From Siderastrea radians (Eukaryota; Cnidaria; Anthozoa; Scleractinia; Rhizangiidae), in contig OZ024895.1 in NCBI GenBank assembly GCA_964017195.1, positions 13,260,501-13,324,500 on the forward strand: DNA of 64,000 bases, in the 5' to 3' direction. The translations under genes and the position numbers were made by a program. Under the pieces are notes generated by a model, which was not told the origin of the DNA, did no database searches, and worked only from the letters and a program-made list of their open reading frames with translations. The first letter of the stretch is position 1. The number at the start of each line of letters is the position of its first letter. Shown one piece after another: positions 13,705-58,630 of this stretch.

Positions 13705-13774
13705 ATTCAAATATACCGTATTTTCTCGATTAAACGGCAGGGGCGTTTATTTAAAACTCGGCCTCACAGATCCG

Positions 13775-16700
13775 TTTTTTTATATTAAAAAAAAAAAAAC
13801 AGTTAGAGAAAGGCTAGTCCTTCTCTATAGTATTGCTGTATAAGTATTAAAACAATGGACACTATTTCTCAATGTTTTAATACCATTTTAATTTGTTTAG
13901 TTTAGGGTTGTAAATCGGTTCAAAGCAGAAATCTCCACTCCAATATGCACCAAATCAGCAAGCCCGCACTTAGTCGAACAAATGAACGAATGAACAAGAT
14001 GACACCCAACAGACGATGGGCAAACAAACAAACGCAAGGCCGTTAGAAAACAAAACATTTCAAAAGCTGAGTAACTCAAACTAAAGAAATGAAAGGGATC
14101 CAAGGCCAGAGCGAATGAATGGACGACCCACACGACCGAACGATAGCCGAAATGAACAGACGAACAAATGAACGTAACAAAGCAGGCACACAAAATTCAA
14201 GCACAGATTGGCAGAAGATTAAGCCATGTAAGATTCTTAAGTTGTTTAATCTGGGCCAGTTTGGTTTAGAATAAAGAAAAGTATTTGTGAGCGGCTTGAA
14301 AGAAAATTCGTAGGTTAATTAAGCTTATGTATTAACCTTTTTACACCTTTTCAGTGAGCTCACCAAAAGTTAAAATTTAATACAGCATAGAACGATAATG
14401 AGAAAGTCGTTTAGTCTGCTCAGAAGGTCTGTCATTCTCGTCAGGGGCACAGTGAACAGACCTGGTAGAGAGTTCATAAAACGCAAAACAGTAAAACGTG
14501 CGGAAGGAAAATTAACGTAAACAACGGGGATAAAATTCTTACTTTTCGCTTTAGGGTGAAACTCTCTGACCACACGTTTCAAACTGTGGTACCACAGCTG
14601 GCCCTACGTGCCTGAGCTGACAACTATCATTCTATGCTGTTTACTAGAAATTAAAATGTTTGTTGTACCTTTTTGGTAGTTGTTTGAATTTGCTGCTCCG
14701 ACAGTTCTGTGTCATCCAAAGGACAGCTTCCCTCAGTAAATTGTGGCTTGAGATACGTTTAACGCAGAAGTTTACAAGTTAACAAGGTCATATTGTTAAA
14801 TTTGACCTAAAGAGCGCTTCTAAAAGTTTAAGAATTAGACTTTTTTCGCGGAAAAGAAAAAAAAGAAAAGCGAAAAATAACCTCGTCTTTTCGTTTTAGT
14901 CAGGTAGCTCGCGTTGCCTGTTTGCACACGCGATTGAATTCAAACAGCATATAGGGAGTGACGTCATAGTAAGCGCGCGCGAATAAATACGCCCAAGAAA
15001 ATTTCGCGGGAGATGATCCCCTTTATAGTTGAAACTGCGATTATTTCGTTAAACGTCAGTGTTTAAAAAAACAAAAACAAAAAAAAACGTAACGATTAAC
15101 CTACGTTTTGGTTTACATTTTACTGTCGAGAAGAGCTGAATATGAAGTGATAATTTTTCGGCAAAAAGTATAATATTAAGCCCTAAATGCTCATTAACCA
15201 TAAACAATAGGAAAATACAATTATAGTTATAAATCAGGTTAATTTCCCTTATGCTACATCTAATCGAGTGTCAATACCTAGGGAATAACAATACCACGGA
15301 GAGTTTCACGGGCCATGAGGTGCCTACCCAGATCCATCTCAACCTAAGTATACAGGTGATTATACAATCCAAAAGGAAATGCGCTAAACCCAAGTTCAAA
15401 CTTACATTTTCCTTTATTTGATTTTATTAAATGGCAATTTCTAGAAACAGTCAATACTATTGAATGTTCACGGGCCATGAGGTGCCTTCCCAGATCCATC
15501 CCAACCTAAGTGTACAGGTGATAATACACCCCGAAAGGGAATGCACTAAACACCCGGGGTTACTGGTGCAATGTCGTTCTACAGTCATATCCATATCTAT
15601 ATGGACAGAGGTCTGACACAACTGAACCCAAGGAGAGTAGGATCTTAGGTCGGACATGGTCCGCCATATGGTGGGACATTGGTCCGGCATATGGATCTTC
15701 AAGTTTTTTTATATTAAAAAAAAAAAAAAAAAAACATTTAGAGAAAGGCTAGTCCTTCTCTATAGTATTGCTGTATAAGTATTAAAACAATGGACACTAT
15801 TTCTCAATGTTTTAATACCATTTTAATTTGTTTAGTTTAGGGTTGTAAATCGGTTCAAAGCAGAAATCTCCACTCCAATATGCACCAAATCAGCAAGCCC
15901 GCACTTAGTCGAACAAATGAACGAATGAACAAGATGACACCCAACAGACGATGGGCAAACAAACAAACGCAAGGCCGTTAGAAAACAAAACATTTCAAAA
16001 GCTGAGTAACTCAAACTAAAGAAATGAAAGGGATCCAAGGCCAGAGCGAATGAATGGACGACCCACACGACCGAACGATAGCCGAAATGAACAGACGAAC
16101 AAATGAACGTAACAAAGCAGGCACACAAAATTCAAGCACAGATTGGCAGAAGATTAAGCCATGTAAGATTCTTAAGTTGTTTAATCTGGGCCAGTTTGGT
16201 TTAGAATAAAGAAAAGTATTTGTGAGCGGCTTGAAAGAAAATTCGTAGGTTAATTAAGCTTATGTATTAACCTTTTTACACCTTTTCAGTGAGCTCACCA
16301 AAAGTTAAAATTTAATACAGCATAGAACGATAATGAGAAAGTCGTTTAGTCTGCTCAGAAGGTCTGTCATTCTCGTCAGGGGCACAGTGAACAGACCTGG
16401 TAGAGAGTTCATAAAACGCAAAACAGTAAAACGTGCGGAAGGAAAATTAACGTAAACAACGGGGATAAAATTCTTACTTTTCGCTTTAGGGTGAAACTCT
16501 CTGACCACACGTTTCAAACTGTGGTACCACAGCTGGCCCTACGTGCCTGAGCTGACAACTATCATTCTATGCTGTTTACTAGAAATTAAAATGTTTGTTG
16601 TACCTTTTTGGTAGTTGTTTGAATTTGCTGCTCCGACAGTTCTGTGTCATCCAAAGGACAGCTTCCCTCAGTAAATTGTGGCTTGAGATACGTTTAACGC

Positions 16701-19700
16701 AGAGGTTTACAAGTTAACAAGGTCATATTGTTAAATTTGACCTAAAGAGCGCTTCTAAAAGTTTAAGAATTAGACTTTTTTCGCGGAAAAGAAAAAAAAG
16801 AAAAACGAAAAATAACCTCGTCTTTTCGTTTTAGTCAGGTAGCTCGCGTTGCCTGTTTGCACACGCGATTGAATTCAAACAGCATATAGGGAGTGACGTC
16901 ATAGTAAGCGCGCGCGAATAAATACGCCCAAGAAAATTTCGCGGGAGATGATCCCCTTTATAGTTGAAACTGCGATTATTTCGTTAAACGTCAGTGTTTA
17001 AAAAAACAAAAACAAAAAAAAAAAACGTAACGATTAACCTACGTTTTGGTTTACATTTTACTGTCGAGAAGAGCTGAATATGAAGTGATAATTTTTCGGC
17101 AAAAAGTATAATATTAAGCCCTAAATGCTCATTAACCATAAACAATAGGAAAATACAATTATAGTTATAAATCAGGTTAATTTCCCTTATGCTACATCTA
17201 ATCGAGTGTCAATACCTAGGGAATAACAATACCACGGAGAGTTTCACGGGCCATGAGGTGCCTACCCAGATCCATCTCAACCTAAGTATACAGGTGATTA
17301 TACAATCCAAAAGGAAATGCGCTAAACCCAAGTTCAAACTTACATTTTCCTTTATTTGATTTTATTAAATGGCAATTTCTAGAAACAGTCAATACTATTG
17401 AATGTTCACGGGCCATGAGGTGCCTTCCCAGATCCATCCCAACCTAAGTGTACAGGTGATAATACACCCCGAAAGGGAATGCACTAAACACCCGGGGTTA
17501 CTGGTGCAATGTCGTTCTACAGTCATATCCATATCTATATGGACAGAGGTCTGACACAACTGAACCCAAGGAGAGTAGGATCTTAGGTCGGACATGGTCC
17601 GCCATATGGTGGGACATTGGTCCGGCATATGGATCTTCAAGTTTTTTTATATTAAAAAAAAAAAAAAAACAGTTAGAGAAAGGCTAGTCCTTCTCTATAG
17701 TATTGCTGTATAAGTATTAAAACAATGGACACTATTTCTCAATGTTTTAATACCATTTTAATTTGTTTAGTTTAGGGTTGTAAATCGGTTCAAAGCAGAA
17801 ATCTCCACTCCAATATGCACCAAATCAGCAAGCCCGCACTTAGTCGAACAAATGAACGAATGAACAAGATGACACCCAACAGACGATGGGCAAACAAACA
17901 AACGCAAGGCCGTTAGAAAACAAAACATTTCAAAAGCTGAGTAACTCAAACTAAAGAAATGAAAGGGATCCAAGGCCAGAGCGAATGAATGGACGACCCA
18001 CACGACCGAACGATAGCCGAAATGAACAGACGAACAAATGAACGTAACAAAGCAGGCACACAAAATTCAAGCACAGATTGGCAGAAGATTAAGCCATGTA
18101 AGATTCTTAAGTTGTTTAATCTGGGCCAGTTTGGTTTAGAATAAAGAAAAGTATTTGTGAGCGGCTTGAAAGAAAATTCGTAGGTTAATTAAGCTTATGT
18201 ATTAACCTTTTTACACCTTTTCAGTGAGCTCACCAAAAGTTAAAATTTAATACAGCATAGAACGATAATGAGAAAGTCGTTTAGTCTGCTCAGAAGGTCT
18301 GTCATTCTCGTCAGGGGCACAGTGAACAGACCTGGTAGAGAGTTCATAAAACGCAAAACAGTAAAACGTGCGGAAGGAAAATTAACGTAAACAACGGGGA
18401 TAAAATTCTTACTTTTCGCTTTAGGGTGAAACTCTCTGACCACACGTTTCAAACTGTGGTACCACAGCTGGCCCTACGTGCCTGAGCTGACAACTATCAT
18501 TCTATGCTGTTTACTAGAAATTAAAATGTTTGTTGTACCTTTTTGGTAGTTGTTTGAATTTGCTGCTCCGACAGTTCTGTGTCATCCAAAGGACAGCTTC
18601 CCTCAGTAAATTGTGGCTTGAGATACGTTTAACGCAGAGGTTTACAAGTTAACAAGGTCATATTGTTAAATTTGACCTAAAGAGCGCTTCTAAAAGTTTA
18701 AGAATTAGACTTTTTTCGCGGAAAAGAAAAAAAAGAAAAACGAAAAATAACCTCGTCTTTTCGTTTTAGTCAGGTAGCTCGCGTTGCCTGTTTGCACACG
18801 CGATTGAATTCAAACAGCATATAGGGAGTGACGTCATAGTAAGCGCGCGCGAATAAATACGCCCAAGAAAATTTCGCGGGAGATGATCCCCTTTATAGTT
18901 GAAACTGCGATTATTTCGTTAAACGTCAGTGTTTAAAAAAACAAAAACAAAAAAAAAAAACGTAACGATTAACCTACGTTTTGGTTTACATTTTACTGTC
19001 GAGAAGAGCTGAATATGAAGTGATAATTTTTCGGCAAAAAGTATAATATTAAGCCCTAAATGCTCATTAACCATAAACAATAGGAAAATACAATTATAGT
19101 TATAAATCAGGTTAATTTCCCTTATGCTACATCTAATCGAGTGTCAATACCTAGGGAATAACAATACCACGGAGAGTTTCACGGGCCATGAGGTGCCTAC
19201 CCAGATCCATCTCAACCTAAGTATACAGGTGATTATACAATCCAAAAGGAAATGCGCTAAACCCAAGTTCAAACTTACATTTTCCTTTATTTGATTTTAT
19301 TAAATGGCAATTTCTAGAAACAGTCAATACTATTGAATGTTCACGGGCCATGAGGTGCCTTCCCAGATCCATCCCAACCTAAGTGTACAGGTGATAATAC
19401 ACCCCGAAAGGGAATGCACTAAACACCCGGGGTTACTGGTGCAATGTCGTTCTACAGTCATATCCATATCTATATGGACAGAGGTCTGACACAACTGAAC
19501 CCAAGGAGAGTAGGATCTTAGGTCGGACATGGTCCGCCATATGGTGGGACATTGGTCCGGCATATGGATCTTCAAGTTTTTTTATATTAAAAAAAAAAAA
19601 AAAAAAACATTTAGAGAAAGGCTAGTCCTTCTCTATAGTATTGCTGTATAAGTATTAAAACAATGGACACTATTTCTCAATGTTTTAATACCATTTTAAT

Positions 19701-22700
19701 TTGTTTAGTTTAGGGTTGTAAATCGGTTCAAAGCAGAAATCTCCACTCCAATATGCACCAAATCAGCAAGCCCGCACTTAGTCGAACAAATGAACGAATG
19801 AACAAGATGACACCCAACAGACGATGGGCAAACAAACAAACGCAAGGCCGTTAGAAAACAAAACATTTCAAAAGCTGAGTAACTCAAACTAAAGAAATGA
19901 AAGGGATCCAAGGCCAGAGCGAATGAATGGACGACCCACACGACCGAACGATAGCCGAAATGAACAGACGAACAAATGAACGTAACAAAGCAGGCACACA
20001 AAATTCAAGCACAGATTGGCAGAAGATTAAGCCATGTAAGATTCTTAAGTTGTTTAATCTGGGCCAGTTTGGTTTAGAATAAAGAAAAGTATTTGTGAGC
20101 GGCTTGAAAGAAAATTCGTAGGTTAATTAAGCTTATGTATTAACCTTTTTACACCTTTTCAGTGAGCTCACCAAAAGTTAAAATTTAATACAGCATAGAA
20201 CGATAATGAGAAAGTCGTTTAGTCTGCTCAGAAGGTCTGTCATTCTCGTCAGGGGCACAGTGAACAGACCTGGTAGAGAGTTCATAAAACGCAAAACAGT
20301 AAAACGTGCGGAAGGAAAATTAACGTAAACAACGGGGATAAAATTCTTACTTTTCGCTTTAGGGTGAAACTCTCTGACCACACGTTTCAAACTGTGGTAC
20401 CACAGCTGGCCCTACGTGCCTGAGCTGACAACTATCATTCTATGCTGTTTACTAGAAATTAAAATGTTTGTTGTACCTTTTTGGTAGTTGTTTGAATTTG
20501 CTGCTCCGACAGTTCTGTGTCATCCAAAGGACAGCTTCCCTCAGTAAATTGTGGCTTGAGATACGTTTAACGCAGAGGTTTACAAGTTAACAAGGTCATA
20601 TTGTTAAATTTGACCTAAAGAGCGCTTCTAAAAGTTTAAGAATTAGACTTTTTTCGCGGAAAAGAAAAAAAAGAAAAACGAAAAATAACCTCGTCTTTTC
20701 GTTTTAGTCAGGTAGCTCGCGTTGCCTGTTTGCACACGCGATTGAATTCAAACAGCATATAGGGAGTGACGTCATAGTAAGCGCGCGCGAATAAATACGC
20801 CCAAGAAAATTTCGCGGGAGATGATCCCCTTTATAGTTGAAACTGCGATTATTTCGTTAAACGTCAGTGTTTAAAAAAACAAAAACAAAAAAAAAAAACG
20901 TAACGATTAACCTACGTTTTGGTTTACATTTTACTGTCGAGAAGAGCTGAATATGAAGTGATAATTTTTCGGCAAAAAGTATAATATTAAGCCCTAAATG
21001 CTCATTAACCATAAACAATAGGAAAATACAATTATAGTTATAAATCAGGTTAATTTCCCTTATGCTACATCTAATCGAGTGTCAATACCTAGGGAATAAC
21101 AATACCACGGAGAGTTTCACGGGCCATGAGGTGCCTACCCAGATCCATCTCAACCTAAGTATACAGGTGATTATACAATCCAAAAGGAAATGCGCTAAAC
21201 CCAAGTTCAAACTTACATTTTCCTTTATTTGATTTTATTAAATGGCAATTTCTAGAAACAGTCAATACTATTGAATGTTCACGGGCCATGAGGTGCCTTC
21301 CCAGATCCATCCCAACCTAAGTGTACAGGTGATAATACACCCCGAAAGGGAATGCACTAAACACCCGGGGTTACTGGTGCAATGTCGTTCTACAGTCATA
21401 TCCATATCTATATGGACAGAGGTCTGACACAACTGAACCCAAGGAGAGTAGGATCTTAGGTCGGACATGGTCCGCCATATGGTGGGACATTGGTCCGGCA
21501 TATGGATCTTCAAGTTTTTTTATATTAAAAAAAAAAAAAAAAACAGTTAGAGAAAGGCTAGTCCTTCTCTATAGTATTGCTGTATAAGTATTAAAACAAT
21601 GGACACTATTTCTCAATGTTTTAATACCATTTTAATTTGTTTAGTTTAGGGTTGTAAATCGGTTCAAAGCAGAAATCTCCACTCCAATATGCACCAAATC
21701 AGCAAGCCCGCACTTAGTCGAACAAATGAACGAATGAACAAGATGACACCCAACAGACGATGGGCAAACAAACAAACGCAAGGCCGTTAGAAAACAAAAC
21801 ATTTCAAAAGCTGAGTAACTCAAACTAAAGAAATGAAAGGGATCCAAGGCCAGAGCGAATGAATGGACGACCCACACGACCGAACGATAGCCGAAATGAA
21901 CAGACGAACAAATGAACGTAACAAAGCAGGCACACAAAATTCAAGCACAGATTGGCAGAAGATTAAGCCATGTAAGATTCTTAAGTTGTTTAATCTGGGC
22001 CAGTTTGGTTTAGAATAAAGAAAAGTATTTGTGAGCGGCTTGAAAGAAAATTCGTAGGTTAATTAAGCTTATGTATTAACCTTTTTACACCTTTTCAGTG
22101 AGCTCACCAAAAGTTAAAATTTAATACAGCATAGAACGATAATGAGAAAGTCGTTTAGTCTGCTCAGAAGGTCTGTCATTCTCGTCAGGGGCACAGTGAA
22201 CAGACCTGGTAGAGAGTTCATAAAACGCAAAACAGTAAAACGTGCGGAAGGAAAATTAACGTAAACAACGGGGATAAAATTCTTACTTTTCGCTTTAGGG
22301 TGAAACTCTCTGACCACACGTTTCAAACTGTGGTACCACAGCTGGCCCTACGTGCCTGAGCTGACAACTATCATTCTATGCTGTTTACTAGAAATTAAAA
22401 TGTTTGTTGTACCTTTTTGGTAGTTGTTTGAATTTGCTGCTCCGACAGTTCTGTGTCATCCAAAGGACAGCTTCCCTCAGTAAATTGTGGCTTGAGATAC
22501 GTTTAACGCAGAGGTTTACAAGTTAACAAGGTCATATTGTTAAATTTGACCTAAAGAGCGCTTCTAAAAGTTTAAGAATTAGACTTTTTTCGCGGAAAAG
22601 AAAAAAAAGAAAAACGAAAAATAACCTCGTCTTTTCGTTTTAGTCAGGTAGCTCGCGTTGCCTGTTTGCACACGCGATTGAATTCAAACAGCATATAGGG

Positions 22701-22749
22701 AGTGACGTCATAGTAAGCGCGCGCGAATAAATACGCCCAAGAAAATTTC
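13775..22749 (-). repeat. left arm, 4.6 units
   Basis: Units start at 13775, 15704, 17642, 19577 and 21515 (the last partial); lengths are 1929-1938 bp. Length differences come from the A/T homopolymers next to TATATTA and near the ACGTAACG block. Units 2-5 share two private bases (GAGG in CGCAGAGGTTTAC; AACG in GAAAAACGAAAAAT), whereas unit 1 has the right-arm state. The word after the poly-A alternates CAGTTAG, CATTTAG, CAGTTAG, CATTTAG, CAGTTAG along the arm. Confidence 0.95.
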
Positions 22750-23046
22750 TCTCCGTGGTATTGTTATTCCCTAGGTATTGACACTCGATTAGATGTAGCA
22801 TAAGGGAAATTAACCTGATTTATAACTATAATTGTATTTTCCTATTGTTTATGGTTAATGAGCATTTAGGGCTTAATATTATACTTTTTGCCGAAAAATT
22901 ATCACTTCATATTCAGCTCTTCTCGACAGTAAAATGTAAACCAAAACGTAGGTTAATCGTTACGTTTTTTTTTGTTTTTGTTTTTTTAAACACTGACGTT
23001 TAACGAAATAATCGCAGTTTCAACTATAAAGGGGATCATCTCCCGC
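22750..23046 (+). repeat. 297-bp spacer at the inversion point
   Basis: The left arm ends in CCCAAGAAAATTTC and the next bases (TCTCCGTGGTATTG) are unit sequence in the opposite orientation, about 300 bp further back in the unit. The matching right-arm inverted sequence GAAATTTTCTTGGG begins at 23047. The spacer is therefore ordinary unit sequence, not an unrelated loop. The junction shares one base (C) of microhomology. Confidence 0.9.
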
Positions 23047-26000
23047 GAAATTTTCTTGGGCGTATTTATTCGCGCGCGCTTACTATGACGTCACTCCCTA
23101 TATGCTGTTTGAATTCAATCGCGTGTGCAAACAGGCAACGCGAGCTACCTGACTAAAACGAAAAGACGAGGTTATTTTTCGCTTTTCTTTTTTTTCTTTT
23201 CCGCGAAAAAAGTCTAATTCTTAAACTTTTAGAAGCGCTCTTTAGGTCAAATTTAACAATATGACCTTGTTAACTTGTAAACTTCTGCGTTAAACGTATC
23301 TCAAGCCACAATTTACTGAGGGAAGCTGTCCTTTGGATGACACAGAACTGTCGGAGCAGCAAATTCAAACAACTACCAAAAAGGTACAACAAACATTTTA
23401 ATTTCTAGTAAACAGCATAGAATGATAGTTGTCAGCTCAGGCACGTAGGGCCAGCTGTGGTACCACAGTTTGAAACGTGTGGTCAGAGAGTTTCACCCTA
23501 AAGCGAAAAGTAAGAATTTTATCCCCGTTGTTTACGTTAATTTTCCTTCCGCACGTTTTACTGTTTTGCGTTTTATGAACTCTCTACCAGGTCTGTTCAC
23601 TGTGCCCCTGACGAGAATGACAGACCTTCTGAGCAGACTAAACGACTTTCTCATTATCGTTCTATGCTGTATTAAATTTTAACTTTTGGTGAGCTCACTG
23701 AAAAGGTGTAAAAAGGTTAATACATAAGCTTAATTAACCTACGAATTTTCTTTCAAGCCGCTCACAAATACTTTTCTTTATTCTAAACCAAACTGGCCCA
23801 GATTAAACAACTTAAGAATCTTACATGGCTTAATCTTCTGCCAATCTGTGCTTGAATTTTGTGTGCCTGCTTTGTTACGTTCATTTGTTCGTCTGTTCAT
23901 TTCGGCTATCGTTCGGTCGTGTGGGTCGTCCATTCATTCGCTCTGGCCTTGGATCCCTTTCATTTCTTTAGTTTGAGTTACTCAGCTTTTGAAATGTTTT
24001 GTTTTCTAACGGCCTTGCGTTTGTTTGTTTGCCCATCGTCTGTTGGGTGTCATCTTGTTCATTCGTTCATTTGTTCGACTAAGTGCGGGCTTGCTGATTT
24101 GGTGCATATTGGAGTGGAGATTTCTGCTTTGAACCGATTTACAACCCTAAACTAAACAAATTAAAATGGTATTAAAACATTGAGAAATAGTGTCCATTGT
24201 TTTAATACTTATACAGCAATACTATAGAGAAGGACTAGCCTTTCTCTAAATGTTTTTTTTTTTTTTTTTAATATAAAAAAACTTGAAGATCCATATGCCG
24301 GACCAATGTCCCACCATATGGCGGACCATGTCCGACCTAAGATCCTACTCTCCTTGGGTTCAGTTGTGTCAGACCTCTGTCCATATAGATATGGATATGA
24401 CTGTAGAACGACATTGCACCAGTAACCCCGGGTGTTTAGTGCATTCCCTTTCGGGGTGTATTATCACCTGTACACTTAGGTTGGGATGGATCTGGGAAGG
24501 CACCTCATGGCCCGTGAACATTCAATAGTATTGACTGTTTCTAGAAATTGCCATTTAATAAAATCAAATAAAGGAAAATGTAAGTTTGAACTTGGGTTTA
24601 GCGCATTTCCTTTTGGATTGTATAATCACCTGTATACTTAGGTTGAGATGGATCTGGGTAGGCACCTCATGGCCCGTGAAACTCTCCGTGGTATTGTTAT
24701 TCCCTAGGTATTGACACTCGATTAGATGTAGCATAAGGGAAATTAACCTGATTTATAACTATAATTGTATTTTCCTATTGTTTATGGTTAATGAGCATTT
24801 AGGGCTTAATATTATACTTTTTGCCGAAAAATTATCACTTCATATTCAGCTCTTCTCGACAGTAAAATGTAAACCAAAACGTAGGTTAATCGTTACGTTT
24901 TTTTTTTGTTTTTGTTTTTTTAAACACTGACGTTTAACGAAATAATCGCAGTTTCAACTATAAAGGGGATCATCTCCCGCGAAATTTTCTTGGGCGTATT
25001 TATTCGCGCGCGCTTACTATGACGTCACTCCCTATATGCTGTTTGAATTCAATCGCGTGTGCAAACAGGCAACGCGAGCTACCTGACTAAAACGAAAAGA
25101 CGAGGTTATTTTTCGCTTTTCTTTTTTTTCTTTTCCGCGAAAAAAGTCTAATTCTTAAACTTTTAGAAGCGCTCTTTAGGTCAAATTTAACAATATGACC
25201 TTGTTAACTTGTAAACTTCTGCGTTAAACGTATCTCAAGCCACAATTTACTGAGGGAAGCTGTCCTTTGGATGACACAGAACTGTCGGAGCAGCAAATTC
25301 AAACAACTACCAAAAAGGTACAACAAACATTTTAATTTCTAGTAAACAGCATAGAATGATAGTTGTCAGCTCAGGCACGTAGGGCCAGCTGTGGTACCAC
25401 AGTTTGAAACGTGTGGTCAGAGAGTTTCACCCTAAAGCGAAAAGTAAGAATTTTATCCCCGTTGTTTACGTTAATTTTCCTTCCGCACGTTTTACTGTTT
25501 TGCGTTTTATGAACTCTCTACCAGGTCTGTTCACTGTGCCCCTGACGAGAATGACAGACCTTCTGAGCAGACTAAACGACTTTCTCATTATCGTTCTATG
25601 CTGTATTAAATTTTAACTTTTGGTGAGCTCACTGAAAAGGTGTAAAAAGGTTAATACATAAGCTTAATTAACCTACGAATTTTCTTTCAAGCCGCTCACA
25701 AATACTTTTCTTTATTCTAAACCAAACTGGCCCAGATTAAACAACTTAAGAATCTTACATGGCTTAATCTTCTGCCAATCTGTGCTTGAATTTTGTGTGC
25801 CTGCTTTGTTACGTTCATTTGTTCGTCTGTTCATTTCGGCTATCGTTCGGTCGTGTGGGTCGTCCATTCATTCGCTCTGGCCTTGGATCCCTTTCATTTC
25901 TTTAGTTTGAGTTACTCAGCTTTTGAAATGTTTTGTTTTCTAACGGCCTTGCGTTTGTTTGTTTGCCCATCGTCTGTTGGGTGTCATCTTGTTCATTCGT

Positions 26001-31238: not shown

Positions 31239-31246
31239 AAAGCGAA
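31239..31246 (+). repeat. target-site duplication AAAGCGAA, left
   Basis: Exact match to 34205-34212. Uninterrupted units read CCCTAAAGCGAAAAGTAAG, which contains this 8-mer once. Confidence 0.9.
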
Positions 31247-31289
31247 CACTCATGTCCAATACTGCCGCACTGATACGGGCCGTTATTTG

Positions 31290-31735
31290 CAGTTGACGGT
31301 CCGTAAGTTTCGCACGGACCGTCACTCTTGCTTCCGGACCGTGATTTGCGGTTGACAGTCCGTATGCTTCGCACGGACCGTCATTCTTACTTATAGTCCG
31401 AATACAGTTGACGGAGAGCGTGCATCTCATTATCGCGCCAGGGCCAACTGTTGACGGTCCGTCATTTCGCGCGGACCGTCACTCTTGCTTACGGACCGTT
31501 ATTTGCGGTTGACGGTCCGTACGTTTCGCACAGACCGTCATTCTTACTTATAGTCCGAATACAGAGCGTGCATCTCATTATCGCGCCAGGGCCAACTGTT
31601 GACGGTCCGTACATTTCGCACGGACCGTCATCATTGCTTACGGACCGTCATTTGCGGTTGACGGTCCGTACGTTTCGTACAGACCGTCATCCTTGCTTAC
31701 AGACCGTCATTTACGATTCACGATCCGTATGTAGA
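31290..31735. repeat. left subterminal ACGGWCCGT repeats
   Basis: Alternating GACGGTCCGT and CACGGACCGT words are separated by TTTCGCA, TTTGCGGTT and CTTGCTT spacers. A longer block (GCATCTCATTATCGCGCC) recurs about 165 bp apart, near 31420 and 31570. Some words have single-base changes. Short open frames across this region are products of the repeat period. Confidence 0.85.
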
Positions 31736-31762
31736 GGTATAAATAGTCTATACAAGTATGAT

Positions 31763-34185: not shown

Positions 34186-34204
34186 GGTGTATTGGACAAC
34201 CCTC

Positions 34205-37200: not shown

Positions 37201-40200
37201 TAAAATCAAATAAAGGAAAATGTAAGTTTGAACTTGGGTTTAGCGCATTTCCTTTTGGATTGTATAATCACCTGTATACTTAGGTTGAGATGGATCTGGG
37301 TAGGCACCTCATGGCCCGTGAAACTCTCCGTGGTATTGTTATTCCCTAGGTATTGACACTCGATTAGATGTAGCATAAGGGAAATTAACCTGATTTATAA
37401 CTATAATTGTATTTTCCTATTGTTTATGGTTAATGAGCATTTAGGGCTTAATATTATACTTTTTGCCGAAAAATTATCACTTCATATTCAGCTCTTCTCG
37501 ACAGTAAAATGTAAACCAAAACGTAGGTTAATCGTTACGTTTTTTTTTTGTTTTTGTTTTTTTAAACACTGACGTTTAACGAAATAATCGCAGTTTCAAC
37601 TATAAAGGGGATCATCTCCCGCGAAATTTTCTTGGGCGTATTTATTCGCGCGCGCTTACTATGACGTCACTCCCTATATGCTGTTTGAATTCAATCGCGT
37701 GTGCAAACAGGCAACGCGAGCTACCTGACTAAAACGAAAAGACGAGGTTATTTTTCGCTTTTCTTTTTTTTCTTTTCCGCGAAAGAAGTCTAATTCTTAA
37801 ACTTTTAGAAGCGCTCTTTAGGTCAAATTTAACAATATGACCTTGTTAACTTGTAAACTTCTGCGTTAAACGTATCTCAAGCCACAATTTACTGAGGGAA
37901 GCTGTCCTTTGGATGACACAGAACTGTCGGAGCAGCAAATTCAAACAACTACCAAAAAGGTACAACAAACATTTTAATTTCTAGTAAACAGCATAGAATG
38001 ATAGTTGTCAGCTCAGGCACGTAGGGCCAGCTGTGGTACCACAGTTTGAAACGTGTGGTCAGAGAGTTTCACCCTAAAGCGAAAAGTAAGAATTTTATCC
38101 CCGTTGTTTACGTTAATTTTCCTTCCGCACGTTTTACTGTTTTGCGTTTTATGAACTCTCTACCAGGTCTGTTCACTGTGCCCCTGACGAGAATGACAGA
38201 CCTTCTGAGCAGACTAAACGACTTTCTCATTATCGTTCTATGCTGTATTAAATTTTAACTTTTGGTGAGCTCACTGAAAAGGTGTAAAAAGGTTAATACA
38301 TAAGCTTAATTAACCTACGAATTTTCTTTCAAGCCGCTCACAAATACTTTTCTTTATTCTAAACCAAACTGGCCCAGATTAAACAACTTAAGAATCTTAC
38401 ATGGCTTAATCTTCTGCCAATCTGTGCTTGAATTTTGTGTGCCTGCTTTGTTACGTTCATTTGTTCGTCTGTTCATTTCGGCTATCGTTCGGTCGTGTGG
38501 GTCGTCCATTCATTCGCTCTGGCCTTGGATCCCTTTCATTTCTTTAGTTTGAGTTACTCAGCTTTTGAAATGTTTTGTTTTCTAACGGCCTTGCGTTTGT
38601 TTGTTTGCCCATCGTCTGTTGGGTGTCATCTTGTTCATTCGTTCATTTGTTCGACTAAGTGCGGGCTTGCTGATTTGGTGCATATTGGAGTGGAGATTTC
38701 TGCTTTGAACCGATTTACAACCCTAAACTAAACAAATTAAAATGGTATTAAAACATTGAGAAATAGTGTCCATTGTTTTAATACTTATACAGCAATACTA
38801 TAGAGAAGGACTAGCCTTTCTCTAAATGTTTTTTTTTTTTTTTTTTAATATAAAAAAACTTGAAGATCCATATGCCGGACCAATGTCCCACCATATGGCG
38901 GACCATGTCCGACCTAAGATCCTACTCTCCTTGGGTTCAGTTGTGTCAGACCTCTGTCCATATAGATATGGATATGACTGTAGAACGACATTGCACCAGT
39001 AACCCCGGGTGTTTAGTGCATTCCCTTTCGGGGTGTATTATCACCTGTACACTTAGGTTGGGATGGATCTGGGAAGGCACCTCATGGCCCGTGAACATTC
39101 AATAGTATTGACTGTTTCTAGAAATTGCCATTTAATAAAATCAAATAAAGGAAAATGTAAGTTTGAACTTGGGTTTAGCGCATTTCCTTTTGGATTGTAT
39201 AATCACCTGTATACTTAGGTTGAGATGGATCTGGGTAGGCACCTCATGGCCCGTGAAACTCTCCGTGGTATTGTTATTCCCTAGGTATTGACACTCGATT
39301 AGATGTAGCATAAGGGAAATTAACCTGATTTATAACTATAATTGTATTTTCCTATTGTTTATGGTTAATGAGCATTTAGGGCTTAATATTATACTTTTTG
39401 CCGAAAAATTATCACTTCATATTCAGCTCTTCTCGACAGTAAAATGTAAACCAAAACGTAGGTTAATCGTTACGTTTTTTTTTTGTTTTTGTTTTTTTAA
39501 ACACTGACGTTTAACGAAATAATCGCAGTTTCAACTATAAAGGGGATCATCTCCCGCGAAATTTTCTTGGGCGTATTTATTCGCGCGCGCTTACTATGAC
39601 GTCACTCCCTATATGCTGTTTGAATTCAATCGCGTGTGCAAACAGGCAACGCGAGCTACCTGACTAAAACGAAAAGACGAGGTTATTTTTCGCTTTTCTT
39701 TTTTTTCTTTTCCGCGAAAAAAGTCTAATTCTTAAACTTTTAGAAGCGCTCTTTAGGTCAAATTTAACAATATGACCTTGTTAACTTGTAAACTTCTGCG
39801 TTAAACGTATCTCAAGCCACAATTTACTGAGGGAAGCTGTCCTTTGGATGACACAGAACTGTCGGAGCAGCAAATTCAAACAACTACCAAAAAGGTACAA
39901 CAAACATTTTAATTTCTAGTAAACAGCATAGAATGATAGTTGTCAGCTCAGGCACGTAGGGCCAGCTGTGGTACCACAGTTTGAAACGTGTGGTCAGAGA
40001 GTTTCACCCTAAAGCGAAAAGTAAGAATTTTATCCCCGTTGTTTACGTTAATTTTCCTTCCGCACGTTTTACTGTTTTGCGTTTTATGAACTCTCTACCA
40101 GGTCTGTTCACTGTGCCCCTGACGAGAATGACAGACCTTCTGAGCAGACTAAACGACTTTCTCATTATCGTTCTATGCTGTATTAAATTTTAACTTTTGG

Positions 40201-43200
40201 TGAGCTCACTGAAAAGGTGTAAAAAGGTTAATACATAAGCTTAATTAACCTACGAATTTTCTTTCAAGCCGCTCACAAATACTTTTCTTTATTCTAAACC
40301 AAACTGGCCCAGATTAAACAACTTAAGAATCTTACATGGCTTAATCTTCTGCCAATCTGTGCTTGAATTTTGTGTGCCTGCTTTGTTACGTTCATTTGTT
40401 CGTCTGTTCATTTCGGCTATCGTTCGGTCGTGTGGGTCGTCCATTCATTCGCTCTGGCCTTGGATCCCTTTCATTTCTTTAGTTTGAGTTACTCAGCTTT
40501 TGAAATGTTTTGTTTTCTAACGGCCTTGCGTTTGTTTGTTTGCCCATCGTCTGTTGGGTGTCATCTTGTTCATTCGTTCATTTGTTCGACTAAGTGCGGG
40601 CTTGCTGATTTGGTGCATATTGGAGTGGAGATTTCTGCTTTGAACCGATTTACAACCCTAAACTAAACAAATTAAAATGGTATTAAAACATTGAGAAATA
40701 GTGTCCATTGTTTTAATACTTATACAGCAATACTATAGAGAAGGACTAGCCTTTCTCTAAATGTTTTTTTTTTTTTTTTTTAATATAACAAAACTTGAAG
40801 ATCCATATGCCGGACCAATGTCCCACCATATGGCGGACCATGTCCGACCTAAGATCCTACTCTCCTTGGGTTCAGTTGTGTCAGACCTCTGTCCATATAG
40901 ATATGGATATGACTGTAGAACGACATTGCACCAGTAACCCCGGGTGTTTAGTGCATTCCCTTTCGGGGTGTATTATCACCTGTACACTTAGGTTGGGATG
41001 GATCTGGGAAGGCACCTCATGGCCCGTGAACATTCTATAGTATTGACTGTTTCTAGAAATTGCCATTTAATAAAATCAAATAAAGGAAAATGTAAGTTTG
41101 AACTTGGGTTTAGCGCATTTCCTTTTGGATTGTATAATCACCTGTATACTTAGGTTGAGATGGATCTGGGTAGGCACCTCATGGCCCGTGAAACTCTCCG
41201 TGGTATTGTTATTCCCTAGGTATTGACACTCGATTAGATGTAGCATAAGGGAAATTAACCTGATTTATAACTATAATTGTATTTTCCTATTGTTTATGGT
41301 TAATGAGCATTTAGGGCTTAATATTATACTTTTTGCCGAAAAATTATCACTTCATATTCAGCTCTTCTCGACAGTAAAATGTAAACCAAAACGTAGGTTA
41401 ATCGTTACGTTTTTTTTTTGTTTTTGTTTTTTTAAACACTGACGTTTAACGAAATAATCGCAGTTTCAACTATAAAGGGGATCATCTCCCGCGAAATTTT
41501 CTTGGGCGTATTTATTCGCGCGCGCTTACTATGACGTCACTCCCTATATGCTGTTTGAATTCAATCGCGTGTGCAAACAGGCAACGCGAGCTACCTGACT
41601 AAAACGAAAAGACGAGGTTATTTTTCGCTTTTCTTTTTTTTCTTTTCCGCGAAAGAAGTCTAATTCTTAAACTTTTAGAAGCGCTCTTTAGGTCAAATTT
41701 AACAATATGACCTTGTTAACTTGTAAACTTCTGCGTTAAACGTATCTCAAGCCACAATTTACTGAGGGAAGCTGTCCTTTGGATGACACAGAACTGTCGG
41801 AGCAGCAAATTCAAACAACTACCAAAAAGGTACAACAAACATTTTAATTTCTAGTAAACAGCATAGAATGATAGTTGTCAGCTCAGGCACGTAGGGCCAG
41901 CTGTGGTACCACAGTTTGAAACGTGTGGTCAGAGAGTTTCACCCTAAAGCGAAAAGTAAGAATTTTATCCCCGTTGTTTACGTTAATTTTCCTTCCGCAC
42001 GTTTTACTGTTTTGCGTTTTATGAACTCTCTACCAGGTCTGTTCACTGTGCCCCTGACGAGAATGACAGACCTTCTGAGCAGACTAAACGACTTTCTCAT
42101 TATCGTTCTATGCTGTATTAAATTTTAACTTTTGGTGAGCTCACTGAAAAGGTGTAAAAAGGTTAATACATAAGCTTAATTAACCTACGAATTTTCTTTC
42201 AAGCCGCTCACAAATACTTTTCTTTATTCTAAACCAAACTGGCCCAGATTAAACAACTTAAGAATCTTACATGGCTTAATCTTCTGCCAATCTGTGCTTG
42301 AATTTTGTGTGCCTGCTTTGTTACGTTCATTTGTTCGTCTGTTCATTTCGGCTATCGTTCGGTCGTGTGGGTCGTCCATTCATTCGCTCTGGCCTTGGAT
42401 CCCTTTCATTTCTTTAGTTTGAGTTACTCAGCTTTTGAAATGTTTTGTTTTCTAACGGCCTTGCGTTTGTTTGTTTGCCCATCGTCTGTTGGGTGTCATC
42501 TTGTTCATTCGTTCATTTGTTCGACTAAGTGCGGGCTTGCTGATTTGGTGCATATTGGAGTGGAGATTTCTGCTTTGAACCGATTTACAACCCTAAACTA
42601 AACAAATTAAAATGGTATTAAAACATTGAGAAATAGTGTCCATTGTTTTAATACTTATACAGCAATACTATAGAGAAGGACTAGCCTTTCTCTAAATGTT
42701 TTTTTTTTTTTTTTTTAATATAAAAAAACTTGAAGATCCATATGCCGGACCAATGTCCCACCATATGGCGGACCATGTCCGACCTAAGATCCTACTCTCC
42801 TTGGGTTCAGTTGTGTCAGACCTCTGTCCATATAGATATGGATATGACTGTAGAACGACATTGCACCAGTAACCCCGGGTGTTTAGTGCATTCCCTTTCG
42901 GGGTGTATTATCACCTGTACACTTAGGTTGGGATGGATCTGGGAAGGCACCTCATGGCCCGTGAACATTCAATAGTATTGACTGTTTCTAGAAATTGCCA
43001 TTTAATAAAATCAAATAAAGGAAAATGTAAGTTTGAACTTGGGTTTAGCGCATTTCCTTTTGGATTGTATAATCACCTGTATACTTAGGTTGAGATGGAT
43101 CTGGGTAGGCACCTCATGGCCCGTGAAACTCTCCGTGGTATTGTTATTCCCTAGGTATTGACACTCGATTAGATGTAGCATAAGGGAAATTAACCTGATT

Positions 43201-46200
43201 TATAACTATAATTGTATTTTCCTATTGTTTATGGTTAATGAGCATTTAGGGCTTAATATTATACTTTTTGCCGAAAAATTATCACTTCATATTCAGCTCT
43301 TCTCGACAGTAAAATGTAAACCAAAACGTAGGTTAATCGTTACGTTTTTTTTTTGTTTTTGTTTTTTTAAACACTGACGTTTAACGAAATAATCGCAGTT
43401 TCAACTATAAAGGGGATCATCTCCCGCGAAATTTTCTTGGGCGTATTTATTCGCGCGCGCTTACTATGACGTCACTCCCTATATGCTGTTTGAATTCAAT
43501 CGCGTGTGCAAACAGGCAACGCGAGCTACCTGACTAAAACGAAAAGACGAGGTTATTTTTCGCTTTTCTTTTTTTTCTTTTCCGCGAAAGAAGTCTAATT
43601 CTTAAACTTTTAGAAGCGCTCTTTAGGTCAAATTTAACAATATGACCTTGTTAACTTGTAAACTTCTGCGTTAAACGTATCTCAAGCCACAATTTACTGA
43701 GGGAAGCTGTCCTTTGGATGACACAGAACTGTCGGAGCAGCAAATTCAAACAACTACCAAAAAGGTACAACAAACATTTTAATTTCTAGTAAACAGCATA
43801 GAATGATAGTTGTCAGCTCAGGCACGTAGGGCCAGCTGTGGTACCACAGTTTGAAACGTGTGGTCAGAGAGTTTCACCCTAAAGCGAAAAGTAAGAATTT
43901 TATCCCCGTTGTTTACGTTAATTTTCCTTCCGCACGTTTTACTGTTTTGCGTTTTATGAACTCTCTACCAGGTCTGTTCACTGTGCCCCTGACGAGAATG
44001 ACAGACCTTCTGAGCAGACTAAACGACTTTCTCATTATCGTTCTATGCTGTATTAAATTTTAACTTTTGGTGAGCTCACTGAAAAGGTGTAAAAAGGTTA
44101 ATACATAAGCTTAATTAACCTACGAATTTTCTTTCAAGCCGCTCACAAATACTTTTCTTTATTCTAAACCAAACTGGCCCAGATTAAACAACTTAAGAAT
44201 CTTACATGGCTTAATCTTCTGCCAATCTGTGCTTGAATTTTGTGTGCCTGCTTTGTTACGTTCATTTGTTCGTCTGTTCATTTCGGCTATCGTTCGGTCG
44301 TGTGGGTCGTCCATTCATTCGCTCTGGCCTTGGATCCCTTTCATTTCTTTAGTTTGAGTTACTCAGCTTTTGAAATGTTTTGTTTTCTAACGGCCTTGCG
44401 TTTGTTTGTTTGCCCATCGTCTGTTGGGTGTCATCTTGTTCATTCGTTCATTTGTTCGACTAAGTGCGGGCTTGCTGATTTGGTGCATATTGGAGTGGAG
44501 ATTTCTGCTTTGAACCGATTTACAACCCTAAACTAAACAAATTAAAATGGTATTAAAACATTGAGAAATAGTGTCCATTGTTTTAATACTTATACAGCAA
44601 TACTATAGAGAAGGACTAGCCTTTCTCTAAATGTTTTTTTTTTTTTTTTTTTAATATAAAAAAACTTGAAGATCCATATGCCGGACCAATGTCCCACCAT
44701 ATGGCGGACCATGTCCGACCTAAGATCCTACTCTCCTTGGGTTCAGTTGTGTCAGACCTCTGTCCATATAGATATGGATATGACTGTAGAACGACATTGC
44801 ACCAGTAACCCCGGGTGTTTAGTGCATTCCCTTTCGGGGTGTATTATCACCTGTACACTTAGGTTGGGATGGATCTGGGAAGGCACCTCATGGCCCGTGA
44901 ACATTCAATAGTATTGACTGTTTCTAGAAATTGCCATTTAATAAAATCAAATAAAGGAAAATGTAAGTTTGAACTTGGGTTTAGCGCATTTCCTTTTGGA
45001 TTGTATAATCACCTGTATACTTAGGTTGAGATGGATCTGGGTAGGCACCTCATGGCCCGTGAAACTCTCCGTGGTATTGTTATTCCCTAGGTATTGACAC
45101 TCGATTAGATGTAGCATAAGGGAAATTAACCTGATTTATAACTATAATTGTATTTTCCTATTGTTTATGGTTAATGAGCATTTAGGGCTTAATATTATAC
45201 TTTTTGCCGAAAAATTATCACTTCATATTCAGCTCTTCTCGACAGTAAAATGTAAACCAAAACGTAGGTTAATCGTTACGTTTTTTTTTTGTTTTTGTTT
45301 TTTTAAACACTGACGTTTAACGAAATAATCGCAGTTTCAACTATAAAGGGGATCATCTCCCGCGAAATTTTCTTGGGCGTATTTATTCGCGCGCGCTTAC
45401 TATGACGTCACTCCCTATATGCTGTTTGAATTCAATCGCGTGTGCAAACAGGCAACGCGAGCTACCTGACTAAAACGAAAAGACGAGGTTATTTTTCGCT
45501 TTTCTTTTTTTTCTTTTCCGCGAAAAAAGTCTAATTCTTAAACTTTTAGAAGCGCTCTTTAGGTCAAATTTAACAATATGACCTTGTTAACTTGTAAACT
45601 TCTGCGTTAAACGTATCTCAAGCCACAATTTACTGAGGGAAGCTGTCCTTTGGATGACACAGAACTGTCGGAGCAGCAAATTCAAACAACTACCAAAAAG
45701 GTACAACAAACATTTTAATTTCTAGTAAACAGCATAGAATGATAGTTGTCAGCTCAGGCACGTAGGGCCAGCTGTGGTACCACAGTTTGAAACGTGTGGT
45801 CAGAGAGTTTCACCCTAAAGCGAAAAGTAAGAATTTTATCCCCGTTGTTTACGTTAATTTTCCTTCCGCACGTTTTACTGTTTTGCGTTTTATGAACTCT
45901 CTACCAGGTCTGTTCACTGTGCCCCTGACGAGAATGACAGACCTTCTGAGCAGACTAAACGACTTTCTCATTATCGTTCTATGCTGTATTAAATTTTAAC
46001 TTTTGGTGAGCTCACTGAAAAGGTGTAAAAAGGTTAATACATAAGCTTAATTAACCTACGAATTTTCTTTCAAGCCGCTCACAAATACTTTTCTTTATTC
46101 TAAACCAAACTGGCCCAGATTAAACAACTTAAGAATCTTACATGGCTTAATCTTCTGCCAATCTGTGCTTGAATTTTGTGTGCCTGCTTTGTTACGTTCA

Positions 46201-49200
46201 TTTGTTCGTCTGTTCATTTCGGCTATCGTTCGGTCGTGTGGGTCGTCCATTCATTCGCTCTGGCCTTGGATCCCTTTCATTTCTTTAGTTTGAGTTACTC
46301 AGCTTTTGAAATGTTTTGTTTTCTAACGGCCTTGCGTTTTTTTGTTTGCCCATCGTCTGTTGGGTGTCATCTTGTTCATTCGTTCATTTGTTCGACTAAG
46401 TGCGGGCTTGCTGATTTGGTGCATATTGGAGTGGAGATTTCTGCTTTGAACCGATTTACAACCCTAAACTAAACAAATTAAAATGGTATTAAAACATTGA
46501 GAAATAGTGTCCATTGTTTTAATACTTATACAGCAATACTATAGAGAAGGACTAGCCTTTCTCTAAATGTTTTTTTTTTTTTTTTTTAATATAAAAAAAC
46601 TTGAAGATCCATATGCCGGACCAATGTCCCACCATATGGCGGACCATGTCCGACCTAAGATCCTACTCTCCTTGGGTTCAGTTGTGTCAGACCTCTGTCC
46701 ATATAGATATGGATATGACTGTAGAACGACATTGCACCAGTAACCCCGGGTGTTTAGTGCATTCCCTTTCGGGGTGTATTATCACCTGTACACTTAGGTT
46801 GGGATGGATCTGGGAAGGCACCTCATGGCCCGTGAACATTCAATAGTATTGACTGTTTCTAGAAATTGCCATTTAATAAAATCAAATAAAGGAAAATGTA
46901 AGTTTGAACTTGGGTTTAGCGCATTTCCTTTTGGATTGTATAATCACCTGTATACTTAGGTTGAGATGGATCTGGGTAGGCACCTCATGGCCCGTGAAAC
47001 TCTCCGTGGTATTGTTATTCCCTAGGTATTGACACTCGATTAGATGTAGCATAAGGGAAATTAACCTGATTTATAACTATAATTGTATTTTCCTATTGTT
47101 TATGGTTAATGAGCATTTAGGGCTTAATATTATACTTTTTGCCGAAAAATTATCACTTCATATTCAGCTCTTCTCGACAGTAAAATGTAAACCAAAACGT
47201 AGGTTAATCGTTACGTTTTTTTTTTGTTTTTGTTTTTTTAAACACTGACGTTTAACGAAATAATCGCAGTTTCAACTATAAAGGGGATCATCTCCCGCGA
47301 AATTTTCTTGGGCGTATTTATTCGCGCGCGCTTACTATGACGTCACTCCCTATATGCTGTTTGAATTCAATCGCGTGTGCAAACAGGCAACGCGAGCTAC
47401 CTGACTAAAACGAAAAGACGAGGTTATTTTTCGCTTTTCTTTTTTTTCTTTTCCGCGAAAAAAGTCTAATTCTTAAACTTTTAGAAGCGCTCTTTAGGTC
47501 AAATTTAACAATATGACCTTGTTAACTTGTAAACTTCTGCGTTAAACGTATCTCAAGCCACAATTTACTGAGGGAAGCTGTCCTTTGGATGACACAGAAC
47601 TGTCGGAGCAGCAAATTCAAACAACTACCAAAAAGGTACAACAAACATTTTAATTTCTAGTAAACAGCATAGAATGATAGTTGTCAGCTCAGGCACGTAG
47701 GGCCAGCTGTGGTACCACAGTTTGAAACGTGTGGTCAGAGAGTTTCACCCTAAAGCGAAAAGTAAGAATTTTATCCCCGTTGTTTACGTTAATTTTCCTT
47801 CCGCACGTTTTACTGTTTTGCGTTTTATGAACTCTCTACCAGGTCTGTTCACTGTGCCCCTGACGAGAATGACAGACCTTCTGAGCAGACTAAACGACTT
47901 TCTCATTATCGTTCTATGCTGTATTAAATTTTAACTTTTGGTGAGCTCACTGAAAAGGTGTAAAAAGGTTAATACATAAGCTTAATTAACCTACGAATTT
48001 TCTTTCAAGCCGCTCACAAATACTTTTCTTTATTCTAAACCAAACTGGCCCAGATTAAACAACTTAAGAATCTTACATGGCTTAATCTTCTGCCAATCTG
48101 TGCTTGAATTTTGTGTGCCTGCTTTGTTACGTTCATTTGTTCGTCTGTTCATTTCGGCTATCGTTCGGTCGTGTGGGTCGTCCATTCATTCGCTCTGGCC
48201 TTGGATCCCTTTCATTTCTTTAGTTTGAGTTACTCAGCTTTTGAAATGTTTTGTTTTCTAACGGCCTTGCGTTTGTTTGTTTGCCCATCGTCTGTTGGGT
48301 GTCATCTTGTTCATTCGTTCATTTGTTCGACTAAGTGCGGGCTTGCTGATTTGGTGCATATTGGAGTGGAGATTTCTGCTTTGAACCGATTTACAACCCT
48401 AAACTAAACAAATTAAAATGGTATTAAAACATTGAGAAATAGTGTCCATTGTTTTAATACTTATACAGCAATACTATAGAGAAGGACTAGCCTTTCTCTA
48501 AATGTTTTTTTTTTTTTTTTTTAATATAAAAAAACTTGAAGATCCATATGCCGGACCAATGTCCCACCATATGGCGGACCATGTCCGACCTAAGATCCTA
48601 CTCTCCTTGGGTTCAGTTGTGTCAGACCTCTGTCCATATAGATATGGATATGACTGTAGAACGACATTGCACCAGTAACCCCGGGTGTTTAGTGCATTCC
48701 CTTTCGGGGTGTATTATCACCTGTACACTTAGGTTGGGATGGATCTGGGAAGGCACCTCATGGCCCGTGAACATTCAATAGTATTGACTGTTTCTAGAAA
48801 TTGCCATTTAATAAAATCAAATAAAGGAAAATGTAAGTTTGAACTTGGGTTTAGCGCATTTCCTTTTGGATTGTATAATCACCTGTATACTTAGGTTGAG
48901 ATGGATCTGGGTAGGCACCTCATGGCCCGTGAAACTCTCCGTGGTATTGTTATTCCCTAGGTATTGACACTCGATTAGATGTAGCATAAGGGAAATTAAC
49001 CTGATTTATAACTATAATTGTATTTTCCTATTGTTTATGGTTAATGAGCATTTAGGGCTTAATATTATACTTTTTGCCGAAAAATTATCACTTCATATTC
49101 AGCTCTTCTCGACAGTAAAATGTAAACCAAAACGTAGGTTAATCGTTACGTTTTTTTTTTGTTTTTGTTTTTTTAAACACTGACGTTTAACGAAATAATC

Positions 49201-50467
49201 GCAGTTTCAACTATAAAGGGGATCATCTCCCGCGAAATTTTCTTGGGCGTATTTATTCGCGCGCGCTTACTATGACGTCACTCCCTATATGCTGTTTGAA
49301 TTCAATCGCGTGTGCAAACAGGCAACGCGAGCTACCTGACTAAAACGAAAAGACGAGGTTATTTTTCGCTTTTCTTTTTTTTCTTTTCCGCGAAAAAAGT
49401 CTAATTCTTAAACTTTTAGAAGCGCTCTTTAGGTCAAATTTAACAATATGACCTTGTTAACTTGTAAACTTCTGCGTTAAACGTATCTCAAGCCACAATT
49501 TACTGAGGGAAGCTGTCCTTTGGATGACACAGAACTGTCGGAGCAGCAAATTCAAACAACTACCAAAAAGGTACAACAAACATTTTAATTTCTAGTAAAC
49601 AGCATAGAATGATAGTTGTCAGCTCAGGCACGTAGGGCCAGCTGTGGTACCACAGTTTGAAACGTGTGGTCAGAGAGTTTCACCCTAAAGCGAAAAGTAA
49701 GAATTTTATCCCCGTTGTTTACGTTAATTTTCCTTCCGCACGTTTTACTGTTTTGCGTTTTATGAACTCTCTACCAGGTCTGTTCACTGTGCCCCTGACG
49801 AGAATGACAGACCTTCTGAGCAGACTAAACGACTTTCTCATTATCGTTCTATGCTGTATTAAATTTTAACTTTTGGTGAGCTCACTGAAAAGGTGTAAAA
49901 AGGTTAATACATAAGCTTAATTAACCTACGAATTTTCTTTCAAGCCGCTCACAAATACTTTTCTTTATTCTAAACCAAACTGGCCCAGATTAAACAACTT
50001 AAGAATCTTACATGGCTTAATCTTCTGCCAATCTGTGCTTGAATTTTGTGTGCCTGCTTTGTTACGTTCATTTGTTCGTCTGTTCATTTCGGCTATCGTT
50101 CGGTCGTGTGGGTCGTCCATTCATTCGCTCTGGCCTTGGATCCCTTTCATTTCTTTAGTTTGAGTTACTCAGCTTTTGAAATGTTTTGTTTTCTAACGGC
50201 CTTGCGTTTGTTTGTTTGCCCATCGTCTGTTGGGTGTCATCTTGTTCATTCGTTCATTTGTTCGACTAAGTGCGGGCTTGCTGATTTGGTGCATATTGGA
50301 GTGGAGATTTCTGCTTTGAACCGATTTACAACCCTAAACTAAACAAATTAAAATGGTATTAAAACATTGAGAAATAGTGTCCATTGTTTTAATACTTATA
50401 CAGCAATACTATAGAGAAGGACTAGCCTTTCTCTAAATGTTTTTTTTTTTTTTTTAATATAAAAAAA
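34205..50467 (+). repeat. right arm, distal part
   Basis: Unit boundaries are at 34988, 36924, 38859, 40794, 42729, 44665, 46600 and 48535; the last unit ends at 50467 at the T/A tract with no following CTTGAAG. A three-base haplotype (AATATAACAAAAC before the boundary, ATTCTATAG, GAAAGAAG) occurs at 36917-37784 and again exactly 3,870 bp later (40787-41654). GAAAGAAG alone occurs again near 43587. Singletons are AAAGG at 34955, CTTCTTGAC at about 35560 and a T in CGTTTTTTTG near 46340. Confidence 0.95.

Positions 50468-58595: not shown

Positions 58596-58630
<35 letters not shown>

What the first reader, a model, noticed from the sequence alone, without database searches (positions are those of the whole stretch)
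13775..50467. A 36.7-kb foldback-type element built of 1,935-bp tandem units
Seen: two inverted arms of near-identical units, both ending at the same unit position, flanked by an exact 8-bp repeat (CAGATCCG) that closes into a MITE whose intact relative is at 51103-51160. Known: Foldback-like elements have long inverted repeats made of tandem subunits with a short target duplication, but with far smaller subunits. Inference: this is a giant, non-autonomous foldback element that expanded in place, possibly an undescribed family.
Basis: partly seen in the sequence, partly recalled or inferred. Interest (0 to 1): 0.9.

Follow-up and report, generated by a model that had tools for sequence, protein, structure and literature searches.

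The report
Coral foldback array of 1.9-kb units
A stretch of what looks like coral DNA carries about seventeen near-identical 1.9-kb blocks in two mirror-image arms, inserted as one piece with a short duplicated target on each side, which looks like an oversized relative of so-called foldback jumping genes, although whether other copies exist in the genome could not be checked.

Summary
Positions 13775-50467 hold 17.43 near-identical units of about 1,935 bp. The left arm (4.64 units) and right arm (12.79 units) are inverted and meet at 22749/22750. Both stop at exactly the same unit position (…TTTAATATAAAAAAA), flanked by the exact 8-bp repeat CAGATCCG. Flanks joined with one 8-bp copy best match two local MITE copies. 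A GPCR paralogue in the window lacks the whole nest (12511-51181).

Each unit carries the terminal sequence at one end only, so only an inverted arrangement gives two ends. In each arm, two identical units sharing minority variants lie two units apart, pointing to later block duplications. None of eight unit ORFs tested reaches a Pfam cut-off. Relatives of one ORF occur in public data, at least two joined to other sequence.

Best reading: a non-autonomous foldback-type DNA transposon, inserted as an inverted structure, then expanded by unequal exchange; superfamily unassigned. The decisive test, other genome copies with the same ends and different 8-bp flanks, could not be run: the genome search did not complete.

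The parts
13767..13774 (.). left target-site duplication CAGATCCG
   Evidence: exact copy at 50468-50475
13775..22749 (-). left arm: 4.64 units in minus orientation; outer end TTTTTTTATATTAAA...
   Evidence: BLAST of the unit and unit cutting
22749..22750 (.). palindrome centre: unit position about 691 (-) meets about 392 (+), 1 bp shared; the mirror partner resumes at 23047, leaving a 297-bp loop
22750..50467 (+). right arm: 12.79 units in plus orientation, outer end ...TTTAATATAAAAAAA; interrupted by 31247-34204
24282..26216 (+). one representative unit (1,935 bp), starting CTTGAAGATCC and ending TTTAATATAAAAAAA
50330..50467 (+). terminal region: two hairpins, T-run, TTTAATATAAAAAAA end (its mirror image is at 13775 onward)
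   Evidence: folded as single-stranded DNA, z = -2.91, 2 of 200 shuffles as good
31247..34204 (.). later hAT-like non-autonomous insert, 2,958 bp, imperfect inverted ends (CACTCATGTCCAATAC / GAGGGTTGTCCAATAC), flanked by AAAGCGAA at 31239-31246 and 34205-34212
   Evidence: the hAT label rests on recalled end motifs
50468..50475 (.). right target-site duplication CAGATCCG
12511..51181 (.). nest of MITE copies holding the array; absent from the paralogous GPCR copy, where the sequences ending at 12510 and starting at 51182 meet near 60525

Best explanation
A non-autonomous foldback-type DNA transposon. Shown: inverted arms of 1,935-bp subunits, identical outward ends, an 8-bp (or 9-bp) target duplication inside a MITE, and a paralogous site without the nest. 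Inferred: a transposase supplied in trans recognised the unit terminus (hairpins, T-run, TTTAATATAAAAAAA) in two inverted units and inserted the piece here. Because each unit carries that terminus at one end only, the inverted duplication at unit positions 691/392 must have existed before insertion, and it supplied the second end. Afterwards each arm grew by duplication of two-unit blocks through unequal exchange or replication slippage, and a hAT-like element then landed in one right-arm unit. How the first head-to-tail join (AAAAAAA|CTTGAAG) arose is inferred only: insertion of a family member into a sibling copy would give exactly such a repeat, with its boundary at the element end.
For: Same unit end on both sides with an abutting exact 8-bp repeat; flanks close best on the MITE with one copy of the repeat; paralogous site without the nest; no inverted copy of the terminus at the unit start (best local score 14, reached by 38 of 200 shuffles); units 15704-17641 = 19577-21514 and 36924-38858 = 40794-42728 are identical and share minority variants; four of five left-arm units or part-units share variants seen in no right-arm unit, so the palindrome is not a mirrored copy of one read; insert present in a single unit with its own duplication; five relatives of a unit ORF elsewhere, at least two of them joined to other sequence, at unit about 1722 and 1766.
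Against: No second insertion with the same ends was found, since the genome search did not complete; a search with a junction-spanning translation found no relative. T-rich ends match no superfamily with 8- or 9-bp duplications that I can recall. In Tetris the outermost TIR domain differs from the tandem subunits; here it does not. The variant pattern is not a clean split by arm: the outermost left unit has right-arm states at three sites but shares a C at alignment column 1905 with two left-arm units. An 8-bp repeat could also come from capture of a fragment at a staggered break.
Confidence: 0.6

Rival explanations
1. Capture of an extrachromosomal inverted concatemer: a circle of the unit was amplified by rolling-circle or template-switching replication, and the linear product, ending at a fixed nick or hairpin site, was captured at a staggered break without a transposase of its own.
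For: Concatemer register with the terminus at the end of every unit, a non-homologous centre with 1 bp shared, hairpins beside the end. A circle and rolling-circle-like origin has been proposed for Bari1 arrays (PMC8834629, passages).
Against: Exact same end on both sides plus an 8-bp direct repeat is what a transposase gives; unequal arms need later change; variants are not strictly periodic along the array as copies of one small circle would be.
Confidence: 0.18
2. Dual-primed reverse transcription: an RNA of several units was copied from both nicked target strands, each cDNA starting at the RNA 3' end, and the two cDNAs were joined in the middle.
For: Explains identical outward ends, unequal arms, a centre at arbitrary unit positions with 1 bp shared, and the target duplication in one step.
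Against: No unit ORF over 99 aa and no Pfam match reaching its cut-off among the ten ORFs tested, though a reverse transcriptase could act in trans; no homology between flank and array at the joins; two-unit block duplications need DNA-level recombination anyway.
Confidence: 0.07
3. Assembly or library artefact: a tandem array mis-joined into an inverted one by foldback reads.
For: Near-identical 1.9-kb repeats are hard to assemble; no reads were available.
Against: Left-arm units 2-5 carry variants absent from every right-arm unit that covers those columns; target duplication and MITE closure at the outer ends; an asymmetric 297-bp loop. The exact copy number may still be wrong.
Confidence: 0.1
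4. Ordinary satellite array with an internal inversion and chance end features.
For: High homogeneity and block duplications are typical of satellites.
Against: Same unit position at both ends (about 1 in 1,935 by chance, my estimate) together with the 8-bp repeat (23 of 200,000 random flank pairs).
Confidence: 0.05

Closest known systems
Tetris foldback element, Drosophila virilis (PMC4079207, passages read)
   Same: Non-coding foldback with tandem repeats in inverted arms, 8-10-bp target duplications, arrays that grow by duplication of units
   Different: About 220-bp repeats and TIRs up to 1,735 bp, with a separate outer flanking domain; here 1,935-bp units whose own end is the element end, arms of 9 and 25 kb
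FB of D. melanogaster and TU of sea urchin (details recalled, not from a call)
   Same: Long inverted arms of tandem subunits, 8-9-bp duplication
   Different: Subunits of tens of bp; total size of a few kb
Bari1 tandem clusters, D. melanogaster (PMC8834629, passages read; PMC9659126, passages; unit size recalled)
   Same: Tandem array with units of about this size derived from a DNA transposon
   Different: Head-to-tail repeats of a transposase-coding element; here non-coding, one end per unit, and inverted arms
CMITE tandem arrays, Acropora (PMC2872659, parts 1-2 of 4 and passages read)
   Same: Coral non-autonomous elements that form tandem arrays
   Different: About 100-bp units, TTAA duplications, piggyBac-related; no foldback arms in the parts read

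Membership tests
Foldback-type elements | Long inverted arms built of tandem subunits | tested here: met
Foldback-type elements | Short target-site duplication (8-10 bp in Tetris) | tested here: met
   CAGATCCG, 8 bp (9 if the shared A is counted)
Foldback-type elements | Dispersed copies with the same termini | not testable with these tools
   all 16 genome-search requests unanswered; viral and prokaryote collections gave no true relative
Foldback-type elements (Tetris-like) | Distinct outer terminal domain next to the tandem subunits | tested here: not met
   the terminal sequence is the end of every unit
hAT superfamily | 8-bp duplication (recalled) | tested here: met
hAT superfamily | Terminal inverted repeat beginning CAG-like (recalled) | tested here: not met
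   array ends begin TTTTTTTATATTAAA
Helitron/Helentron | No target duplication (PMC9659126 passage) | tested here: not met
   8-bp duplication
Bari1-type cluster | A whole element, both ends, in each unit | tested here: not met
   unit start holds no inverted terminus
CMITE/piggyBac | TTAA duplication (PMC2872659) | tested here: not met
   CAGATCCG

The most novel reading that the evidence does not exclude
A satellite that moves as a DNA transposon: because every unit carries a usable end, any two inverted units define a mobile piece, so multi-unit arrays of tens of kb excise and insert as one element of an unassigned superfamily.
Probability: 0.2. Interest if true: 0.8.

Novelty: new variant of a known kind. 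Interest (0 to 1): 0.5.

Why it matters
Tetris led its authors to propose foldback elements as a source of satellite DNA, on the basis of 220-bp repeats (PMC4079207). This locus would show the same route with units about nine times longer and arms of 9 and 25 kb. It has a readable order of events (nested MITEs, array insertion, block duplication, hAT-like insertion) and a paralogous site without the nest in the same window. If array-sized transposition is real, it would explain how long inverted satellite blocks spread between genes.

Tried and rejected
Coding function of the unit: eight unit ORFs and two insert ORFs against Pfam at E up to 1; two weak matches (E 0.062 and 0.3, 13.6 and 11.6 bits against cut-offs of 23.8 and 27) and nothing else. 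RNA gene: no Rfam family at gathering score in the window, one match of E 1.3 in one unit at a relaxed threshold, taken as chance, and no tRNA. Unit as a complete TIR transposon repeated head to tail: rejected, no inverted end at the unit start. Relatives in viral or prokaryote DNA: none; one locus (L001, 36% identity over query residues 22-71, a bacterial MAG) was judged spurious and not used. A junction-spanning translation found no relative. The similarity AGATCC between the unit start and the target (CTTGAAGATCC / CAGATCCG) was considered as microhomology and set aside, because the right join lacks the bases that a switch at AGATCC would keep. One search's columns 1149-1154 of the fragment starting at 34199 are not unit variants: 34199-34204 belongs to the insert.

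The ten answered paper searches listed no paper whose title or abstract start describes a foldback element with kilobase subunits. Only listings, abstract starts and passages were seen, so this is not proof of absence.

Full report
Source. The window is eukaryotic: two duplicated rhodopsin-type receptor genes (9403-10350 and 56520-57449, minus strand; Pfam 7tm_1). Of 79 relatives of the first, the closest ones are unnamed (up to 92% identity); the closest named ones are from Stylophora pistillata (70%) and Oculina patagonica (62%). I take the source to be a stony coral; the species is not known.

Anatomy. A 1,935-bp unit matches 13774-22749 in minus and 22749-50468 in plus orientation. The array is 36,693 bp, or 33,727 bp (17.43 units) after removing a 2,958-bp insert and its 8-bp duplication; the left arm is 8,975 bp and the right arm 24,752 bp. 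At the centre, unit position about 691 on the minus strand meets about 392 on the plus strand with 1 bp shared, and the mirror partner of the left arm resumes at 23047. Both outer ends are the same unit position, TTTAATATAAAAAAA outward. CAGATCCG stands at 13767-13774 and 50468-50475. Of 200,000 random pairs of positions in the two flanks, 23 had an exact abutting repeat of 8 bp or more.

Target. The flanks joined with one copy of the 8 bp align to two nearby MITE copies with scores 61 and 51, against 53 and 44 with two copies and 47 and 44 with none. A scan with up to three mismatches found two MITE left ends (12511, 13716) and four right ends, of which two (50974, 51160) lie just right of the array and two (9267, 56366) in the receptor copies; that the array's host MITE is nested in a second one is my reading of these positions. 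In the downstream receptor copy, the sequences that end at 12510 and resume at 51182 meet near 60525. The nest was therefore gained in one copy after the gene duplication, or lost from the other.

History. Substitution divergence is 0.084% within the left arm (14 of 16,569 compared bases), 0.096% within the right arm (119 of 123,344) and 0.177% between arms (188 of 106,209); the two fragments beside the insert were left out. Four of the five left-arm units or part-units share two substitutions (alignment columns 837 and 938) seen in no right-arm unit covering them; the outermost left unit has the right-arm states there, but shares a C at column 1905 with two left-arm units. Three pairs of full units are identical. 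One (24282-26216 and 46600-48534) shows the majority state throughout and says little. The other two share minority variants and lie two units apart: 15704-17641 with 19577-21514, and 36924-38858 with 40794-42728. This points to duplication of two-unit blocks in both arms. The insert 31247-34204 lies in one unit only, with AAAGCGAA on both sides and imperfect inverted ends resembling hAT ends (end motif recalled), so it came late.

The unit. Stop-to-stop ORFs reach 99 aa. Eight of the unit's 21 ORFs of 45 aa or more, and two from the insert, were tested against Pfam at E up to 1; none reached a cut-off. No Rfam family reached gathering score anywhere in the window. The terminal 138 bases hold two hairpins and a T-run and fold better, as single-stranded DNA, than 198 of 200 shuffles. 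The unit start has no inverted copy of the terminus (38 of 200 shuffles score as well or better), so a unit alone, or a purely head-to-tail array, has only one kind of end. A 99-aa ORF of the unit has five relatives among six candidates in the protein collection, at 74-96% identity. In one (P0084) the similarity begins at unit position about 1722; in another (P0083) it stops at about 1766. Related sequence therefore exists outside this locus, in part joined to other DNA. The records name no organism and give no context. A search with a translation across the unit junction found nothing.

Reading. Shared exact ends plus an 8-bp duplication inside a closable target point to a transposase-type insertion of an inverted piece. 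As each unit has one end, the inversion must precede insertion. Growth by unequal exchange then fits the block duplications. How many units arrived is unknown. A captured concatemer and dual-primed reverse transcription remain possible; an assembly error in the overall plan is unlikely because the left arm has its own variants, but the copy number could be off.

Against known kinds. Tetris (PMC4079207, passages) is closest: a non-coding foldback, about 220-bp repeats in the arms, 8-10-bp duplications, arrays arising by duplication. It differs in subunit size and in having a separate outer domain. Bari1 clusters (PMC8834629, passages) repeat an element head to tail. Coral CMITE arrays (PMC2872659) have TTAA duplications and units of about 100 bp. 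The array ends fit no superfamily that I can name.

Limits. The one decisive test, other copies in the genome, was asked for sixteen times and never answered. No reads were available.

Noticed in passing
window 5126-12408 and 52910-60260: Tandem duplication (pieces 81-93% identical) of a region with a rhodopsin-type receptor gene.
   Followed up: partly
window 31247-34204: hAT-like non-autonomous insert with about nine 134-bp tandem repeats (32942-34158) rich in the palindrome ACGGACCGT; CpG observed/expected 1.5.
   Followed up: partly
window 12511-51181: Nest of MITE copies with inverted ends CCGTATTTTCTCGATTAAACG; two left ends and two right ends around the array.
   Followed up: yes
window 24712-25141 (unit positions about 431-860): CpG-rich stretch (observed/expected 1.4-2.1) with a TATA-like site and TGACGTCA, promoter-like in look.
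   Followed up: no
window 24434-24518 and 24596-24680, and the same places of other full units: 85-bp direct repeat inside the unit, 89% identical, 162 bp apart.
   Followed up: no
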